From the NCBI GenBank assembly GCA_016284235.1, contig JAEEOK010000117.1, positions 1-64,000 on the forward strand: a stretch of 64,000 bases of DNA, written 5' to 3'. The position numbers were made by a program, and so were the translations under genes. Below the pieces are notes generated by a model. It searched no databases, was not told where the DNA came from, and worked only from the letters and a program-made list of their open reading frames with translations. Shown here piece by piece: positions 1 to 8,520 of the stretch (position 1 is the stretch's first letter; the number at the start of each line of letters is the position of its first letter). Source of the DNA: Succinivibrionaceae bacterium. Lineage in GTDB: Bacteria; Pseudomonadota; Gammaproteobacteria; Enterobacterales; Succinivibrionaceae.

Positions 1-2
1 AA

Positions 3-440
3 AAGTGCAAAGATAAGTTTGGCACTATTATCCTTGAATGCGACCTGGATATTCCTCCTGAGCTGGTTTACAAAATCTATAAAGAAAGGTGGCAAATCGA
101 AATTGTAATGAGATTCTATAAAAATGCGTGTCTGTTTGATGAAACCAGAGTGCATGATGATTACTCAATCATAGGAAGTGAATTCTGCAATTTCCTGTCA
201 ACTGTTCTATCATTTAAATTGATTAACAAATTTGATAAGGCTGAATTACTGAACACTTTTACCTATAAAAAAATCATGTCAATTTTAAAAAGAGCTAAGC
301 AAGCCAGAATTAACTCGGGTGACTGGCAACTTATAAATATGAATCCGTCTCAGGTTAAGGTACTTCAAAAGTTGTCTCTTTTACCACAAGATGAAGTACC
401 AACTAAAAGATCTCCTGGCAGACCAAAAAAGAATATATAG
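3..440 (+). mobile_element. IS4/IS1634-like transposase, C-terminal part (truncated by window start)
   Basis: Open frame from base 3: KCKDKFGTIILECDLDIPPELVYKIYKERWQIEIVMRFYKN... The YK.YKERWQIE motif is typical of the C-terminal catalytic Glu region of DDE transposases; tail KRSPGRPKKNI. Confidence 0.75.
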
Positions 441-454
441 TATTACGATTTGGG

Positions 455-632
455 AAAGTTCTATTTGAATGATAATTCTTGCGCCTAAAGCTTCTGCGAT
501 AACACGGGTGCGATCAGAAGATTCTGAATCAACTACAACGATTTCATTGCATATCTTTTTAAGACTTAATATGCAGTCTCTAATATTGGATTCTTCATTG
601 TATGTAATAACCACGCCGGTAATAGTCTTCAT
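455..632 (-). pseudogene. Family 2 glycosyltransferase (LPS core type), N-terminal fragment interrupted by the IS
   Basis: MKTITGVVITYNEESNIRDCILSLKKICNEIVVVDSESSDRTRVIAEALGARIIIQ is a GT2 N-terminus; after this the frame runs into IS end sequence. Exact junction approximate. Confidence 0.7.
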
Positions 633-726: not shown

Positions 727-2145
727 TTACCACCAAGCTTCAACTTGAGCACCGAATATGTACTCATGCTGCTTACCCTCTGACAAGCCTGTATATTGTC
801 TATTCATGTAATCACCTGCTAGCCAGGAAGCAAATACTCTAATGGAAGGTCTAGCCCAGAACTGAGTCGAAGGAGACCACTGCTGTGCTAAAGTCAACTT
901 TGATACACCAAGTCTGTCTTTACGTTCTGTGTCTCCCCATCTTGTCCATTGAGTATTGGCAAGTGATGCATAACCAAATTCCAGAACTGTTGAAGTGTAA
1001 TCAGACCACTTGTATGAAGGTCTTAACACGAAAGCCCATTCATTACCTGTTGGATGTGACCAATTTGCACCTTCATAATTTTTACCACTTGCGTGCTTAT
1101 GAGCAAAGATAAATGCATAGCCTAAATTCCACTTGCTCTGCTCTATAACACCCCAGTCAATAATTCTGAGACCTGAACCTCTTTCACCGTATGGAATTAC
1201 AACATCTCCAGTATGATTTGCGGTATCTGTTATGCCACCAACACCATCAAATCCATTTTTACCATAGGAGACGCTTAATTTATTAAATCCACCGAAGAAG
1301 TTACCCTGGGTCCATTCAACCATGGCAAGGAAACCTGTATTTGATCTATGCTCAAGATCATTACCACTCAGCTGATCATGCATTGCATTTTTTTGTTCTT
1401 TTGAGAGATGCTGCCAAGCATAAATCAAGGCTATATCTAAAGTACCATCAGACCATAGAGGTATTCCGTTCCATCTAGCATCTAATTTGTAAGAATTTAT
1501 TGCATTATCCCTTGTTCTAGGTGCTGTCTTTTCCCATTTACCAACAAGGTATTCTCTATTTGGCCAATCATAAATAGTTGGATCAACGTCAACTTGTTGT
1601 TTAATTAAAGCAAATGATAACGAGCCAAGGTTATTCAGACCGATATTTTCAATACCAAAACCAGTACCAGAATTATTCAGATAGTAGAAATCCATAATGT
1701 GGATATCCTTACGCTGATAAAAACGCTTTCCGGCCCATAATTGAATACCAGATGGCATTTCATATCCAGCCCAAGCTTCTCTTAACGAAGTTCTCTGTCC
1801 ATTCCAAGCTGCTGTACCATCATGATCTCCGGCTCTATCACCGCCTCTGCCCACGCCTTGCCAAGAATTACCTTGGTAATCATACTGACCTTTTACACCA
1901 TCAAAATCTTCGTTTGTGCCATAAGCTATGAGAGTGTGAATCGTAAACTTGTTGTTTGCCTTGTTGTAAATCTCCTGTGAAAGTGATAACTCAGCATAAG
2001 TGTCACACTCATCACCTAGACGCCCAACTATGTGACCCTTGGATCCGTTTCCGATGCAGTATGCATTACCACCTTGTGATCCATAGTTTAAACCGGATCT
2101 CATATAACCGTGAAAATCAACTGCTGAAGCAGAAATTGATTTCAA
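727..2145 (-). CDS. LamB/maltoporin-family porin, mature region only (no signal peptide; TTG pseudo-start)
   Basis: VDFHGYMRSGLNYGSQGGNAYC...AGKRFYQRKDIHIMDFYYLNNSG...AQVEAWW matches LamB architecture and the paralogue at 7162-8520. Upstream of SASAVDF there is no hydrophobic signal sequence or RBS. Confidence 0.85.
   Translation of the reverse strand: MKSISASAVDFHGYMRSGLNYGSQGGNAYCIGNGSKGHIVGRLGDECDTYAELSLSQEIYNKANNKFTIHTLIAYGTNEDFDGVKGQYDYQGNSWQGVGRGGDRAGDHDGTAAWNGQRTSLREAWAGYEMPSGIQLWAGKRFYQRKDIHIMDFYYLNNSGTGFGIENIGLNNLGSLSFALIKQQVDVDPTIYDWPNREYLVGKWEKTAPRTRDNAINSYKLDARWNGIPLWSDGTLDIALIYAWQHLSKEQKNAMHDQLSGNDLEHRSNTGFLAMVEWTQGNFFGGFNKLSVSYGKNGFDGVGGITDTANHTGDVVIPYGERGSGLRIIDWGVIEQSKWNLGYAFIFAHKHASGKNYEGANWSHPTGNEWAFVLRPSYKWSDYTSTVLEFGYASLANTQWTRWGDTERKDRLGVSKLTLAQQWSPSTQFWARPSIRVFASWLAGDYMNRQYTGLSEGKQHEYIFGAQVEAWW
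2090..2135. repeat. 46-bp perfect inverted repeat, left copy
   Basis: Reverse complement TTTCTGCTTCAGCAGTTGATTTTCACGGTTATATGAGATCCGGTTT, identical to 7217-7262. Confidence 0.9.
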
Positions 2146-2222
2146 AATTAGTTTTATGTTTATAGAAAAATATTGAAGTTATGAGTGCTTTTTTTGTGCA
2201 CAAAATAAACATAATCTATATT

Positions 2223-2329
2223 AAAGTGTATAAAGAAATGTATATCAGATATTCTGATACAGTTATAGAGTTATCAATAGGTTAAAATCAAATTTCTAAC
2301 AAAGAATAATCTAAAAGTGTATAAAGAAA
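2223..2329. repeat. 16-bp direct repeats upstream of the integrase (2223-2238 and 2314-2329), with an internal dyad TATCAGA-TAT-TCTGATA at 2243-2259
   Basis: AAAGTGTATAAAGAAA occurs twice, 91 bp apart; dyad read directly. Confidence 0.75.
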
Positions 2330-3560
2330 GATATAAATTTAGTAAAATTGGAGCGGTTTTCATGGTTTTAGGTAAACTTAATAATCGAAAAATAGCAAAT
2401 TTATTAAAGCAAAACATAATTGGATTGGTTAATGACGGAGATGGACTGTATTTAAATATTTCATCAGCAGGACATTGTTCATGGGTCTTGAGATATACAA
2501 GTTCAACTCTTAAAAAGAAGCGCAATATGGGATTAGGAAGCTATCCGTCAGTTTCAATTCTTGAGGCTAGAAATTTGAAAAACAAAGCTAAATATCTAAA
2601 TTATACCGGCACAGATCCCATTGATGCACGTAAATTTAATGCTCACAATATAAATGTTGATGAAATATACAAAAAATGGGTTATCCAAAAGACAGCTCAA
2701 GCTGAGTCATTTACAAAAATCAAAGGGATTTTTGAAAAGTATTTGATCTGTAGAATAGCAGATATGAAAATTGCTGATATTACTGCTTTGCATATTTCTG
2801 AAATATTAGTTAGTCTCCAAAATGATAAAGGTATTTCTGTTACTGCACACAAACTTTGCCGGTATTTTAACCAGATGATGAATTATGCGGTTAATCTAGG
2901 CTTCATATCGTTTAATCCTTGCCAAAAGGTAGCATGTTGCTTAAATTCAGCTGTTACAAGGCATTTACCAAGCATTAAGTATACAGAGTTTGATCAATTG
3001 TTCAGGAATCTTGCCAAAGCCAAATTCAGAGGAACTTCGGTTTTTTTATTCATTTTTAATATTCTTACCATTGTCAGACCTAAAGAGGCGAGCTCAGCGA
3101 GATGGAGTGAAGTTGATTTAAAAAAAAAGTATGGATTATTCCGGCAGAAAGGATGAAAATGAATCGTGAACATCGCGTACCATTGTCAGATCAGCTTATA
3201 AAACTCCTAGAAAAACTCAAAAAAATTACAGGTAATTCTACTTATCTGTTTCCTTGTTATTATGATCCTAAAAAACCAACAAACAGCCAGACTGTTAATC
3301 AGATAATAAAAAGAATTGGATTTAAAAATAGGCTTGTAAGCCACGGTTTGAGAGCCACCGCATCAACATATTTCTATGAAAAAGGTTATAAACCTGAAGT
3401 TATAGAATCCTGTCTGGCTCATGTATTTGGAAATCAGACTGTACAGGCGTATAACAGAGGGGATTTTTTTAATCTTCGAATCAAACTTATGAGAGACTGG
3501 TCAAAAGTTGTATCAAAACAGTACGAAAAATATGAATCAATAAAAAATGAAGTTTATTGA
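2317..3560 (+). pseudogene. P4-type tyrosine integrase (DUF4102-like N-terminus), split by a frameshift at an A8 tract
   Basis: ORFs 2317-3156 and 3153-3560 join as ...ARWSEVDLKKK/VWIIPAERMKMNREHRVPLSDQ. Arg (IVRPKEAS), HxxR (SHGLRATAST) and Tyr (VQAYNR) are all present. More likely start ATG at 2362. Confidence 0.8.
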
Positions 3561-3661
3561 TGGACGGGTGCTGCGAACAAAAAACTGGATATCTGTACCT
3601 TTCGGATTGGCTGAATTTTGACGTATATTTCATCAGCCTGATTAGTCCGCCTCTTCAATAG

Positions 3662-3697
3662 AAAAGACCGCATATTATGAAACATGCGGTCTTTTTA
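3662..3697. terminator. Bidirectional terminator between integrase and GGDEF gene
   Basis: AAAAGACCGCAT ... ATGCGGTCTTTTT. Confidence 0.7.
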
Positions 3698-3712
3698 AGA
3701 TATTGAACTTTA

Positions 3713-5251
3713 TCAATCAGCTATCACATAGCAGTCTTTTCCGTTCTTCTTGGCTTCATGCAGAGAAGTTTCTGCTTTTTCTACTATTGTTACCGGATTG
3801 TCATTAGCTCCAAATACAGCTGCTCCGATAGAAACAGTTATCGTAACCTTGTTATCTTTGAAATGGAAAGGTATAGATTTAATAACTTCATTCAGTTTTT
3901 TAAGAGGAGATTCAAGAGACTTTCTGTCGGTTCCCAGGAAAATTACAACAAACTTTTCTCCAATATAGCGGGCAATAAAATCCGTCTCTCTGATTTTGGA
4001 CTGAAGTGCTCTTGCTATAACTTTGAGTGCTCGATCTCCGGCAGGATGTCCGTATTTTTCATTAATTGTTCTGAAATTGTCAACATCAACAAGCACAATT
4101 GAAAGAGCTTCCTTGTAGCGCTGCCAGCGTTTGTATTCATGCTCCATGCGGGTTTCAAATGCATTCTTGTTGCTTAGTTTTGTAAGACTGTCAATTATCA
4201 TGCGATTCTTTTGCTGCAGCAACTTTTGTTTGAATTCATCTGTTTCTGCAACCATTAATTTCAGTCTGTCCTGGATTTTTCCGATCGCTCTTACGTAATT
4301 GCTTTGTTTTTCTTCAACATTGTGATGATTTTCCATAGCTGTTTTAATGTGGGCAACCTGTGCAACAATGTTGTCCTTTAACTGCTGCAGTGTATCAACT
4401 TTGTTGATTGAATCGTTAATTTTGTCTATTGCAAGATCTATAGTGGCATTTGACTCTGATTCCTGGGCGTGAAGATCACGGGCAAGAGCAACAGAATTGT
4501 TGAAGTTGCTGTTAAAGAGACTCAGACTGTTGTTGAGCGTTGTAAGAAAAGTTCTCGCTTCATCACGCTCGATTTTGTAACTCTCTATAACAAGCTCCAG
4601 TACTTTAACTGAAATCCTTGGAAGCTCACTGGCCTTAACGTCAGAGAGAAGCTTATATCTTAAAAGTGTCAGCTCATCGGATATACTGCTTGGAAAATCC
4701 ATTTCGGATATTAATTGTTGAACTGTACTTCCGATATTATTCATCTCCTCGGCATCATAGATTTCTCCATTCATGCCACCCTTGTTTGAAACCATGTTGT
4801 TGTAGGCAACATTGTGAAGTTCGAGAAACTTCAGCATTTTTGATTGTTTTGATGTAATGCCACTTGCCTTGCCGTTTTCATTGTACTTGATGAGAGAATC
4901 CTTTATGTTTCTAAACATCTCAACTTTATCATCAAGAGCATTGATTGATTTTTCGATAGAATCAGTAGCAAAATCGACGGACTTGGACAGATCCAGAATT
5001 TCTTTCTTTAACAGATTTTCAAGTTTGCCCTTTTCTACGGCATATATATCGGAATCCATACTGTTCAGAAGTTTTTCTGTATAATCTTTATTCAGACGTT
5101 CCGAATCTGAAAATGATAGATGTTTCAGTAAGGAAACATACAGATTAATCGTTGATTCCTGTTCGGCCTTTCTTCTGGCCTGTAAATCCATAAGTTGTTT
5201 CTGTATTTCCCTAATTTTTTCCTTTAGTGACTCTTCAACACTTAAAGCCAT
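3713..5251 (-). CDS. GGDEF-domain protein with coiled-coil N-terminus (degenerate IGEKF signature)
   Basis: C-terminal SLTKLSNKNAFETRMEHEYKRWQRYKEALSIVLVDVDNFRTINEKYGHPAGDRALKVIARAL...RETDFIARYIGEKFVVIF; start taken at MALSVEESL. Confidence 0.85.
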   Translation of the reverse strand: MALSVEESLKEKIREIQKQLMDLQARRKAEQESTINLYVSLLKHLSFSDSERLNKDYTEKLLNSMDSDIYAVEKGKLENLLKKEILDLSKSVDFATDSIEKSINALDDKVEMFRNIKDSLIKYNENGKASGITSKQSKMLKFLELHNVAYNNMVSNKGGMNGEIYDAEEMNNIGSTVQQLISEMDFPSSISDELTLLRYKLLSDVKASELPRISVKVLELVIESYKIERDEARTFLTTLNNSLSLFNSNFNNSVALARDLHAQESESNATIDLAIDKINDSINKVDTLQQLKDNIVAQVAHIKTAMENHHNVEEKQSNYVRAIGKIQDRLKLMVAETDEFKQKLLQQKNRMIIDSLTKLSNKNAFETRMEHEYKRWQRYKEALSIVLVDVDNFRTINEKYGHPAGDRALKVIARALQSKIRETDFIARYIGEKFVVIFLGTDRKSLESPLKKLNEVIKSIPFHFKDNKVTITVSIGAAVFGANDNPVTIVEKAETSLHEAKKNGKDCYVIAD

Positions 5252-5513
5252 ATTACACCTGCAAGTATAGACAATACTGGAGAAATTATAATAGAAGATA
5301 CTTTGATTGTGGTAATATCTATGCATTGATCTGTGATCACGCTGAATGAATTTTCAGATCCTTTTGCGTAACTGTTATTAATTTTTCAGGTCTGCACGAG
5401 TAATTCTCGCCATGATTAAATCTGCTACGAATTTTCTATAACTATCGTGCAGTGACCATTCAGATTGAATCAAAATATTTGTACTTATACGGACTAATAC
5501 TGTTGAGGAGCTT

Positions 5514-5843
5514 ATGGAATCAAAGAAGTTGTTCATTTTGAGTAAATTAACTGAACTTGAAGATGAACTGAGAAATCTTGAATTGTGGACCAGAGAGACA
5601 TTAACAGAGGAACAGCTTAGAAGCAGTGCTCCTTTCGGCTGTGATGTTATGGATTTTCATGAGTGGCTGCAGCATATGATGATTCCCCGGCTTAAACAAA
5701 TAATAGAAAAGGGAGAGAAAGTTCCTTTTAAGATGGATACGGCATCGATGGCTGAGTATGTATATCGTGATGATATTTCAAAATACAGAAGACTGATTGT
5801 TATTTTAAAAACTCTTGATCGAGCCGTAAAAGTCTGCCTGTAG
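5514..5843 (+). CDS. yqcC: YqcC family protein
   Basis: Short protein with PFGCDVMDFHEWLQHMMIPRLKQII, resembling YqcC; adjacent to queF. Confidence 0.65.
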   Translation: MESKKLFILSKLTELEDELRNLELWTRETLTEEQLRSSAPFGCDVMDFHEWLQHMMIPRLKQIIEKGEKVPFKMDTASMAEYVYRDDISKYRRLIVILKTLDRAVKVCL

Positions 5844-5865
5844 CAGATTTTTGCCGCTTGGATAA

Positions 5866-6738
5866 CTATTGGCGTATGGTTCGCCCAATATCTTCAGATG
5901 TTTCAAAATTGCTTCTGAATGGATTTATGTCTATTCCCCCTCGTCTTGTGTATCTTGCGAACACTGTGAGCCTGTCTGGATGGCACCTGTTCGTGATATC
6001 TGTGAAAATTCGTTCGACGCACATTTCATGAAATTCATTGTGATTTCTGAAGGAAACGATGTATTTCAGCAGATTTTCGTGATCAATTCCCTGTCCTTCA
6101 TAATGTATGTAGACAGATCCCCAGTCTGGCTGCTGCGTAACAAGGCAGTTTGATTTAAGGAGATTAGAACACAGTTTTTCTTTGATATAACCCTTTTTCG
6201 GATCTGGTATGAGAAAGTTCGGATTGTAGTCATATGAATCTATCTCTATGGATTCATATGACTGCTCAAGACAAAGATAATTGCCGCATCCGGATGTCTC
6301 ACTATTAATAAAGAATGATTTTGGAATTATGCTGTGACTCAAAGGGTAGATTTCCAGCTGGATTGCTTCTTCTGGTGCAGGGGACAGTTTTGAAGTTAAA
6401 TCTCTGTGTACAGTGCTCTTCAGATCATCAAGAGACCGGATTTTAGTGAAATTAAAACTGTTCAGGTACAGTTTTAATGATTTAGATTCAACTAAGTTAT
6501 CTGTAGTGCACGGTATCTGCAGAGTACACAGCGCTGCTACCGGCAATCCGTTCATATTCAAAAAAGAGATTTCATAACAATTCCAAAGATCATACCCCTT
6601 AAACGGCAGCAAATCTTCGAGATTAAGCTTTTCGCGATTTAATGATCTGGGAATAGCAACCAGGAGGTCGGGATTGTATATCTTAGGATATGAGGTTTTC
6701 TGGCCAAGCGAGAAATGTTCGATATCGGATAAATTCAT
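5866..6738 (-). CDS. queF: NADPH-dependent 7-cyano-7-deazaguanine reductase QueF
   Basis: MNLSDIEHFSLGQKTSYPKIYNPDLLVAIPR...ESKSLKLYLNSFNFTKI...CPVTQQPDWGSVYIHYEG-like (here LVTQQPDWGSVYIHYEG); bimodular QueF pattern. Confidence 0.9.
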   Translation of the reverse strand: MNLSDIEHFSLGQKTSYPKIYNPDLLVAIPRSLNREKLNLEDLLPFKGYDLWNCYEISFLNMNGLPVAALCTLQIPCTTDNLVESKSLKLYLNSFNFTKIRSLDDLKSTVHRDLTSKLSPAPEEAIQLEIYPLSHSIIPKSFFINSETSGCGNYLCLEQSYESIEIDSYDYNPNFLIPDPKKGYIKEKLCSNLLKSNCLVTQQPDWGSVYIHYEGQGIDHENLLKYIVSFRNHNEFHEMCVERIFTDITNRCHPDRLTVFARYTRRGGIDINPFRSNFETSEDIGRTIRQ

Positions 6739-6925
6739 GATAATTCTCATAACAGATTGAAATTGAGATGTTCCTATCCCTGGGTGAAGACAGGAGACGG
6801 AGGTTAAGCAGTCAAGGATAAGAACTGTTGAGATGTTCAGAATGAAAAAAAAAAACACATCGTGAGTATCTTAATTAGTGTAGTAAAAGTGAAAAAAGTT
6901 CCAAGAGTTGCTAAAAGAATTGTGA

Positions 6926-6950
6926 TTTTTGTGATCTCTATCACAAAATA
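6926..6950. promoter_or_regulatory. CRP-type operator upstream of the intact porin gene
   Basis: TTTTTGTGATCTCTATCACAAAATA: symmetric TGTGA-N6-TCACA. Confidence 0.75.
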
Positions 6951-7008
6951 ATGCTAAAAATCATTTATATTTTGAACAATAAAAAATTTTTATACTAAAA
7001 TAAACGCA

Positions 7009-7027
7009 AATTTGGTGATACCAAATT
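7009..7027. promoter_or_regulatory. Palindromic putative operator AATTTGG-TGATA-CCAAATT
   Basis: Perfect 7-bp arms with 5-nt spacer between the CRP-type site and the likely -10 (TATAAT, 7088-7093). Confidence 0.45.
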
Positions 7028-7161
7028 AGAGATAGAAGTGAGAAAAAGTTAAATACATTTTGAGTTTATTTGTTTGCTTAATTTTTGTATAATCTCACTT
7101 GATAATTCGAAATGATTTGAATTATCTCCAATTTCTAACAATTCCACATGAGGATTTTATA

Positions 7162-8520
7162 ATGAAAGCAAAAATGCTTCCAATTACTGCGGTAGTTGCT
7201 TTAGCTTTAGGTTCAGTTTCTGCTTCAGCAGTTGATTTTCACGGTTATATGAGATCCGGTTTGAACTACGGTTCTCAGAGCGGTAATGCATACTGCTTCG
7301 GTAATGGTAATCTTGGTCATCTCCTCGGCCGTCTTGGTGACGAGTGCGATACCTATGCAGAAATTTCATTATCACAGGAAGTATACAACAAGGCAAATAA
7401 CAAGTTTACCGTTCATACTCTGGTTGCATACGGTTCTAATGAGAGCAACTGGGATGAGCAGGGTAACTCATGGCAGGGCGTAGGTAAAGGTGGTGATCGT
7501 GCCGGTGACAATGGTACTTCAGCATGGAACGGTCAGAGACTTTCTTTCCGTGAGGCTTATGTTGATTATGAAATGCCTTCAGGAATCACTCTTTGGGCTG
7601 GTAAGAGATTCTATCAGCGTAAAGATATCCACATCATGGATTTCTACTATCTGAACAACTCTGGTCACGGTGTTGGTCTTGAGAACATCGGTGTTGGTAA
7701 TCTCGGTTCTCTGTCATTTGCTATCATCAAGCAGCAGGTTGACATGGAAGATGTAGGTGCCGTTTACGGATGGCCTGATAATTCAAGATCAAACTCTGCA
7801 ATGAATTCTTACAAGCTTGATGCTCGTTGGAACGGTATTCCAATGTGGTCTGATGCAACTTTAGACGTTGCACTGATCTATGCATGGCAGAAGATGTCAA
7901 AGGCTCAGAAGGATGTTTATCATAACAACACTGGTTTCCTTGGTTTCATCGAGTGGACTCAGGGTAACTTCTTCGGAGGCTTCAACAAGTTAAGCTTCGC
8001 ATACGGTACCGACGCTCTTGATTATGCAGGCGTTCTCAACGGCGGTAACCACTTAGGTGATAACGTAATCCCTTACGACGAAGACGGTTCAGGTTTCCGT
8101 GTTATCGATTGGGGTGTTGTTGAGCAGTCTAAGTGGAACTTAGGTTACGCAGTTCTCTTTGCTCACAAGCATGCAAAGAATGCTAACTGGTCACATCCAT
8201 CTGGAAACGATTGGGCATTCGTATTGAGACCTTCTTTCAAGTGGTCTGATTACACCTCTACTGTTCTTGAGTTCGGTTACACCAATCAGAAGAACACCGG
8301 CTGGAACGGTTGGGCAACTCCAGACAAGAACCGCGTAAGTGCAACCAAACTTACTCTTGCACAGCAGTGGTCTCCAGCTACTCATTTCTGGGCTCGTCCA
8401 TCAATCCGTGTATTCGGTTCATGGTTGGCAGGCGATTTAATGCGTAATGAGTACACCGGTCTTTCTCACAACAAGCAGCACGAGTACATCTTAGGTGCTC
8501 AGGTTGAAGCTTGGTGGTAA
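7162..8520 (+). CDS. lamB: LamB/maltoporin-family carbohydrate porin, intact with signal peptide
   Basis: MKAKMLPITAVVALALGSVSASA-VDFHGYMRSGLNYGSQ...GKRFYQRKDIHIMDFYYL...GAQVEAWW; matches LamB topology. Confidence 0.88.
   Translation: MKAKMLPITAVVALALGSVSASAVDFHGYMRSGLNYGSQSGNAYCFGNGNLGHLLGRLGDECDTYAEISLSQEVYNKANNKFTVHTLVAYGSNESNWDEQGNSWQGVGKGGDRAGDNGTSAWNGQRLSFREAYVDYEMPSGITLWAGKRFYQRKDIHIMDFYYLNNSGHGVGLENIGVGNLGSLSFAIIKQQVDMEDVGAVYGWPDNSRSNSAMNSYKLDARWNGIPMWSDATLDVALIYAWQKMSKAQKDVYHNNTGFLGFIEWTQGNFFGGFNKLSFAYGTDALDYAGVLNGGNHLGDNVIPYDEDGSGFRVIDWGVVEQSKWNLGYAVLFAHKHAKNANWSHPSGNDWAFVLRPSFKWSDYTSTVLEFGYTNQKNTGWNGWATPDKNRVSATKLTLAQQWSPATHFWARPSIRVFGSWLAGDLMRNEYTGLSHNKQHEYILGAQVEAWW
7217..7262. 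repeat. 46-bp perfect inverted repeat, right copy
   Basis: TTTCTGCTTCAGCAGTTGATTTTCACGGTTATATGAGATCCGGTTT; partner at 2090-2135. Confidence 0.9.

What the first reader, a model, noticed from the sequence alone, without database searches (positions are those of the whole stretch)
2090..7262. Putative invertible porin expression switch: 46-bp perfect inverted repeats, two outward-facing porin bodies, one promoter plus signal peptide inside
Seen directly: two LamB-type porin genes lie in opposite orientation. The left one (727-2145, minus) starts abruptly at SASAVDF with no signal peptide, RBS or promoter. The right one (7162-8520, plus) has a CRP-type site, a -10 and a full signal peptide. At exactly the signal-peptide/mature junction both carry the same 46 bp in inverted orientation (2090-2135 and 7217-7262), identical even at wobble positions, while the flanking coding sequence differs frequently at synonymous sites. 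The lone promoter and signal peptide lie on the inner side of the repeats, and a tyrosine integrase lies between them. Inversion of 2136-7216 would disconnect the right porin and connect promoter plus signal peptide to the left porin. Inference: a two-state porin phase/antigenic switch. Alternatives: a one-off homologous recombination or gene conversion, or a porin duplicate broken by integration.
Basis: partly seen in the sequence, partly recalled or inferred. Interest (0 to 1): 0.85.

Follow-up and report, generated by a model that had tools for sequence, protein, structure and literature searches.

The report
Porin head-and-body inversion switch
Two versions of a sugar-channel gene lie back to back and share one on-switch and export signal that could be flipped from one to the other, and related gut bacteria show the same export signal joined to different channel bodies, so this looks like a way of swapping an outer-surface protein, although nobody has yet seen it flip within one population.

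Summary
A 46-bp perfect inverted repeat sits at the signal-peptide/mature junction of two LamB-type porins. Only the right copy has a promoter, a perfect CRP motif and a signal peptide. Inversion of 2136-7216 would fuse the signal peptide in frame to the left body and strand the right one.

The 46 bp alone is modest evidence (p about 0.012 given shared amino acids). Comparative evidence is stronger.
- The left body is intact, under purifying selection, with low codon bias.
- In one congener the same head is joined to a different body; the highly biased body beside ppnN is frameshifted.
- Another congener also has a body lacking a signal peptide, starting at the same CTGCTTCAGCAG with unrelated sequence upstream.
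- In two other genera inverted porin pairs share sharply bounded 130-bp heads that evolve in concert while bodies stay distinct. One promoter carries body b in one species and a c-type body in another, with the gene between them inverted.
- Solo tyrosine recombinases adjoin these porins in three separate cases.

Not shown: both orientations in one population, or activity of this integrase, whose frame is broken at a poly-A run. Best reading: an inversion switch of a known general kind on an unreported substrate, or a slower homologous-recombination version of it.

The parts
727..2135 (-). LamB-type porin body 'L' without signal peptide, SD or promoter; silent in this orientation
   Evidence: PF02264 E 1e-81; no CRP motif or minus-strand promoter match upstream; dN 0.19 with saturated dS against R; low codon bias
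2090..2135 (-). 46-bp inverted repeat, left copy, containing the core CTGCTTCAGCAG
   Evidence: only two copies in the genome
2223..2238 (+). 16-bp direct repeat AAAGTGTATAAAGAAA, copy 1, a possible arm-type site
   Evidence: exact pair, 0.09 matches expected by chance; function inferred
2314..2329 (+). 16-bp direct repeat AAAGTGTATAAAGAAA, copy 2
2362..3560 (+). solo tyrosine integrase (Arm-DNA-bind_3, Phage_int_M, Phage_integrase), frame broken at the A run 3120-3128; R, K, HxxR, H, Y present once both frames are read
   Evidence: orthologous tail in G002 with dN 0.11/dS 2.2
3713..5326 (-). GGDEF diguanylate cyclase, passenger in the putative invertible segment
   Evidence: same neighbour in G002
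5514..5843 (+). yqcC (DUF446), passenger
   Evidence: yqcC lies beside the porin head in relatives
5866..6738 (-). queF, passenger
   Evidence: conserved beside the porin head in G001 and G002
6930..6945 (+). CRP-type motif TGTGATCTCTATCACA
   Evidence: perfect motif upstream of the head in G001 and G002 too
7135..7163 (+). promoter-like match, weak: 4 such matches found in the region against 2.5 in shuffles
7162..7230 (+). start codon and signal peptide (the expression head), MKAKMLPITAVVALALGSVSASA
   Evidence: 100% nt identity with G002 through the signal peptide
7217..7262 (+). 46-bp inverted repeat, right copy
7231..8520 (+). LamB-type porin body 'R', in frame with the head (ON)
   Evidence: PF02264 E 8e-84; strong codon bias
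2136..7216 (.). putative invertible segment (5,081 bp): integrase, GGDEF, yqcC, queF, promoter and signal peptide
   Evidence: in-silico inversion keeps the frame and swaps the expressed body; inversion itself not observed

Best explanation
The locus is a two-body, one-head porin system. The head (CRP-regulated promoter plus signal peptide) sits at the right end of a 5.1-kb segment bounded by inverted 46-bp repeats centred near CTGCTTCAGCAG in the signal-peptide/mature junction. Inversion of 2136-7216 moves the head from body R to body L and back, so one of two LamB-type porins is made at a time. SHOWN: the repeats, the single head, frame conservation on inversion, constraint on the silent body, and, across species, heads joined to different bodies with bodies of inverted pairs swapping sides. 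INFERRED: that inversion is reversible in living populations, that it produces a phase switch, and that the adjacent solo tyrosine integrase (or an orthologue with an intact frame) catalyses it. On this model the 16-bp direct repeats act as arm sites that stay on the segment, so each inversion regenerates one armed and one bare site.
For: Inversion gives an intact 487-aa SP+L fusion. L is open and constrained (dN 0.19, dS saturated), unexpected for a long-silent pseudogene. In congener G001 the yqcC-queF-CRP-SP head is joined to a low-bias body followed by a GT2 gene, while the high-bias body beside ppnN is frameshifted. In congener G004 a body lacking a signal peptide begins at the same 12-bp core with unrelated upstream sequence. 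G002 keeps int-GGDEF-yqcC-queF-head and its contig ends 53 bp past the start of the repeat. In two other genera paralogous heads (-40..+90) are 87-97% identical with unrelated upstream sequence. Heads cluster by genome or genus, bodies by type. The yqcC-side promoter (362 bp, 84% identical) carries body b in G011 and a c-type body in G028, with ypl inverted between them. A solo tyrosine recombinase lies 269-387 bp from the porin in all three species of one genus. The G000 integrase has no cargo and no tRNA/tmRNA neighbour, unlike its nearest relatives, and its tail is conserved in G002.
Against: No genome or read set with the inverted arrangement of this very locus was available. The integrase frame is broken in this assembly. 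L has low codon bias, so it is rarely or weakly expressed. The TCC base shared by L and R points to homologous exchange. In genus g11 inverted pairs with recombining heads have no recombinase nearby. Given amino-acid identity, a 46-bp run is only p about 0.012. G001 could be a different rearrangement (its GT2 neighbour is not the GT2 beside L), and residue matching of its expressed body to L rather than R is only 31:20 (p 0.16).
Confidence: 0.48

Rival explanations
1. Slow, RecA-type homologous recombination: inverted porin paralogues exchange or convert their 5' ends now and then over evolutionary time. The 46 bp is a recent conversion or crossover tract, L is a silent archive, and there is no dedicated switch; the integrase is incidental.
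For: Exact tracts of 26-84 bp between paralogues are common in the family. Heads evolve in concert in a genus with no recombinase next to the pair. The derived TCC 30 bp from the core is shared by L and R. The integrase frame is broken. R is the long-term expressed body by codon bias.
Against: It does not explain why bodies lacking a signal peptide break at the same 12-bp core in two species with unrelated upstream sequence, nor why three unrelated tyrosine recombinases sit beside these porins, nor why a headless body stays intact.
Confidence: 0.36
2. A porin copy broken by a mobile element: an integrase that uses the porin signal-peptide junction as attachment site inserted into L, the rest of the element and L's own head were lost, and L is now a stranded body.
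For: The integrase is of a phage/island type (NF007246/PRK09692, PHROG integrases) whose nearest relatives lie at tmRNA genes. Arm-like repeats lie between int and the site. Truncated porins beside a transposase or unrelated genes occur in the sister genus (G013, G023).
Against: Att repeats of an integrated element should be direct, not inverted; there is no cargo; the integrase and its place are conserved in G002 at saturated dS; L is not decaying.
Confidence: 0.12

Closest known systems
Dichelobacter nodosus omp1 multiple site-specific DNA inversion (Moses et al. 1995, cited in PMC5903667; details from general knowledge)
   Same: Outer-membrane protein genes, one promoter plus 5' coding part that is inverted onto alternative bodies, crossover inside the coding sequence
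   Different: Here two LamB-type porins with the crossover at the signal-peptide/mature junction, housekeeping genes and a P4-type integrase inside the segment; inversion not yet seen
Campylobacter fetus sapA S-layer inversion (general knowledge)
   Same: Single promoter, conserved 5' head, divergent bodies, silent headless cassettes
   Different: sap heads are about 600 bp and recombination is RecA-dependent in the main; here the shared part is 46 bp (about 130 bp in sister genera)
Invertons driven by tyrosine recombinases (FimB/FimE-type, UpaE switch, Bacteroides surface loci; PMC6083910, PMC4747536)
   Same: Inverted repeats and a tyrosine recombinase controlling a surface protein
   Different: Those invert a promoter element; here a 5.1-kb gene-bearing segment with a protein fusion at the crossover
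P4-type / ssrA-targeting island integrases (PRK09692 family; CP4-57 IntA type from general knowledge)
   Same: Arm, core-binding and catalytic domains; nearest relatives at 36-40% identity
   Different: No tmRNA or tRNA, no cargo, beside a porin body

Membership tests
DNA-inversion OMP switch (omp1/sap kind) | Inverted repeats at which inversion exchanges the gene body joined to one promoter and 5' coding head | tested here: met
   46-bp repeats; in-silico inversion gives in-frame SP+L and headless R
DNA-inversion OMP switch (omp1/sap kind) | Silent alternative body lacking promoter and start | tested here: met
   L lacks CRP motif, promoter match and signal peptide
DNA-inversion OMP switch (omp1/sap kind) | Both orientations occur in one population | not testable with these tools
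   No reads or second genome of the species held; only between-species swaps seen
DNA-inversion OMP switch (omp1/sap kind) | A recombinase or RecA shown to drive it | not testable with these tools
   Adjacent integrase frame-broken in the assembly; no experiment
Integrated P4/ssrA-type island or prophage | Integrase adjacent to tRNA/tmRNA attachment site | tested here: not met
   No tRNA or tmRNA in the 64-kb window, while 7 of the 9 nearest relatives examined adjoin tmRNA
Integrated P4/ssrA-type island or prophage | Direct att repeats flanking cargo genes | tested here: not met
   Repeat is inverted; genes between are chromosomal GGDEF, yqcC, queF
P4-type tyrosine integrase | Arm-binding, core-binding and catalytic domains with R-K-HxxR-H-Y | tested here: met
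   PF13356, PF22022, PF00589; residues in alignment; split over two frames
LamB porin | PF02264 above gathering score | tested here: met
   276 and 283 bits against 25.1
Maltoporin LamB (NCBIfam NF006860) | Score above the curated cut-off 394 | tested here: not met
   300 and 338 bits; LamB-type porins of unproven sugar preference

The most novel reading that the evidence does not exclude
A family-wide porin-swapping system in Succinivibrionaceae-type rumen and gut bacteria, in which solo tyrosine recombinases, recruited more than once (one from the tmRNA-island type), invert chromosomal segments at the signal-peptide/mature junction of LamB-type porins, so that one regulated head is fused in turn to alternative porin bodies.
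Probability: 0.3. Interest if true: 0.8.

Novelty: new variant of a known kind. Interest (0 to 1): 0.62.

Why it matters
LamB-type porins are known as phage receptors and as the entry route for sugars. A switch that exchanges the porin body under one CRP-controlled head would let a rumen/gut lineage change receptor or substrate range without losing expression. No report of porin phase variation in this family was found in the open-access library. The comparative signature (heads homogenised within a genome, bodies conserved across genera) gives a way to recognise such systems from draft genomes, and may explain why assemblies break at this gene.

Tried and rejected
IMG/VR searches with the integrase and the porin found no relatives. 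No further 46-bp copies or silent bodies exist in the own genome, so a multi-cassette shufflon is not supported here. Residue matching to show that G001's expressed body is the L orthologue was inconclusive (31:20, p 0.16). A longer palindromic core was not convincing. The idea that the g8 and G000 recombinases are orthologues was dropped (about 21% identity). I first read G011 and G021 as inverted relative to each other; flanking genes showed they are the same arrangement read from the other strand, and that G028 (and, for the yqcC side, G014 and G024) differ.
Full report
WHAT WAS CHECKED. The window is the first 64 kb of contig C104 of a 2.94-Mb, 133-contig draft genome. Its relatives are Succinivibrionaceae/Aeromonadales metagenome genomes. 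The left ORF (727-2145, minus) and right ORF (7162-8520, plus) are both LamB porins, 71% identical in DNA over aligned sites. They share an exact 46-bp inverted repeat at 2090-2135 / 7217-7262; the next-longest shared run is 20 bp. No other copy exists in the genome. Because both proteins share the same residues there, I tested codons only: 13 degenerate shared codons in a row are identical, against 47% identity elsewhere; a run this long anywhere has permutation p = 0.012. So the repeat is real and unusual, but by itself moderate evidence.

ANATOMY. The right copy carries a perfect CRP motif (6930-6945) and the signal peptide MKAKMLPITAVVALALGSVSASA; a perfect motif also lies upstream of the head in G001 and G002. 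The left body has none of these. An in-silico inversion between the repeats makes a 487-aa in-frame SP+L protein and leaves R headless, with stop codons a short way upstream. The segment holds a tyrosine integrase, a GGDEF protein, yqcC and queF. The integrase is split into two frames by a nine-A run, where ten would restore the normal motif; short-read assembly error, a real mutation and slippage cannot be told apart here. Between the left site and the integrase lies an exact 16-bp direct repeat pair, AAAGTGTATAAAGAAA at 2223 and 2314, expected 0.09 times by chance. It could be a pair of arm-type sites, which is inference.

IS THE SILENT BODY ALIVE? L against R gives dN 0.19 with saturated dS, so both have been held by selection for long. 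Codon bias differs strongly: C-ending FYNDH codons 0.59 in R and 0.32 in L, CGT arginine 0.60 and 0.18. R has been the heavily expressed body, and L a kept but less expressed one.

THE SAME GENUS. G002 has the same order integrase-GGDEF-yqcC-queF-head (L072), with the integrase tail at dN 0.11 and dS 2.2, so the integrase has stayed by the locus under constraint. The contig ends 53 bp past the start of the repeat, and the body beside ppnN starts on another contig. G001 has the yqcC-queF-CRP-SP head joined to a low-bias body that is followed by a GT2 gene, while a high-bias body sits next to ppnN, frameshifted and with a different tyrosine recombinase beside it. In the window it is the ppnN-side body that carries the head, so the head has changed partner between species. 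G004 has a body lacking a signal peptide, downstream of kdsA, beginning at exactly CTGCTTCAGCAG, with upstream DNA unrelated to the left flank of the window. Its ppnN contig begins in the last 20 bases of a porin. Contig breaks at the porin in three congeners fit several bodies, or strain mixtures, per genome; this is suggestive only.

OTHER GENERA. In G011, G021, G028 and in G014, G024, G029, LamB porins form inverted pairs by the yqcC/ypl genes. Each pair shares a head from about -40 to +90 at 87-97% identity, with unrelated sequence upstream and divergent bodies downstream. Heads resemble their genome-mate (G011 b/c 97%), while bodies resemble their type across genera (b/b 76-78%, b/c 53-60%). 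This is concerted evolution confined to the head. The yqcC-side promoter of G011 matches that of G028 (84% over 362 bp), but carries body b in G011 and a c-type body in G028, and ypl between the porins is inverted. So inversions with breakpoints at porin heads have happened in this family. In all three g8 species a solo recombinase with recognisable catalytic residues lies 269-387 bp from porin c. In g11 none was seen nearby, so a recombinase is not always needed, or not always adjacent.

THE INTEGRASE. It belongs to the P4-like integrases (NF007246; PHROG integrases). Its nearest relatives in the order are 36-40% identical, and seven of the nine examined adjoin tmRNA. Here there is no tRNA or tmRNA and no cargo. 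That, plus conservation in G002, suggests retention for a local role, but does not prove it.

HOW IT MOST LIKELY WORKS. The head is flipped between two bodies by inversion at the signal-peptide junction, giving one or the other porin. Between-species exchange is shown; a reversible switch inside populations, and the role of the integrase, are inferred. One observation argues for homologous exchange at least in part: the base C in AGATCC, 30 bp from the core, is shared by L and R but is T in G001, G002 and G004. I give 0.48 to the inversion switch, 0.36 to slow homologous exchange without a dedicated switch, and 0.12 to a porin broken by a mobile element.

COMPARISON. The logic is that of D. 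nodosus omp1 (Moses et al. 1995, cited in PMC5903667) and C. fetus sap (general knowledge): known kind, new substrate and architecture. Searches of the open-access library found no account of porin phase variation in this family.

Noticed in passing
window 1-460: Transposase remnant at the contig end that appears to interrupt a WaaE-like glycosyltransferase (381-632, minus) just downstream of the left porin.
   Followed up: partly
L149:3093-4442, L150:5889-7349, L151:14798-16126: A divergent solo tyrosine recombinase conserved beside a LamB porin in three species of another genus, weakly matched by Pfam but with R-K-HxxR-H-Y residues; relatives in G008, G009, G024, G033.
   Followed up: partly
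L099:4330-5565: G001 has a third, different tyrosine recombinase between its frameshifted porin body and ppnN.
   Followed up: partly
L155, L156, L157, L158: In G013 and G023 several porin copies are truncated at the 5' end beside a transposase or unrelated genes, one inside the signal-peptide sequence.
   Followed up: partly
L154:7626-8894: In G029 the b-side promoter carries a c-like body, a likely gene replacement by conversion.
   Followed up: no
window 7080-7262 against L072: The 5' UTR and signal-peptide DNA is 98% identical between G000 and G002 although neighbouring genes have saturated synonymous sites; either strong nucleotide-level constraint or recent exchange.
   Followed up: no
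L100:5800-6030: Array of TTTTGGAGAATTGCGATCATGA-like repeats between kdsA and the headless porin body in G004, resembling transposon-end binding sites.
   Followed up: no
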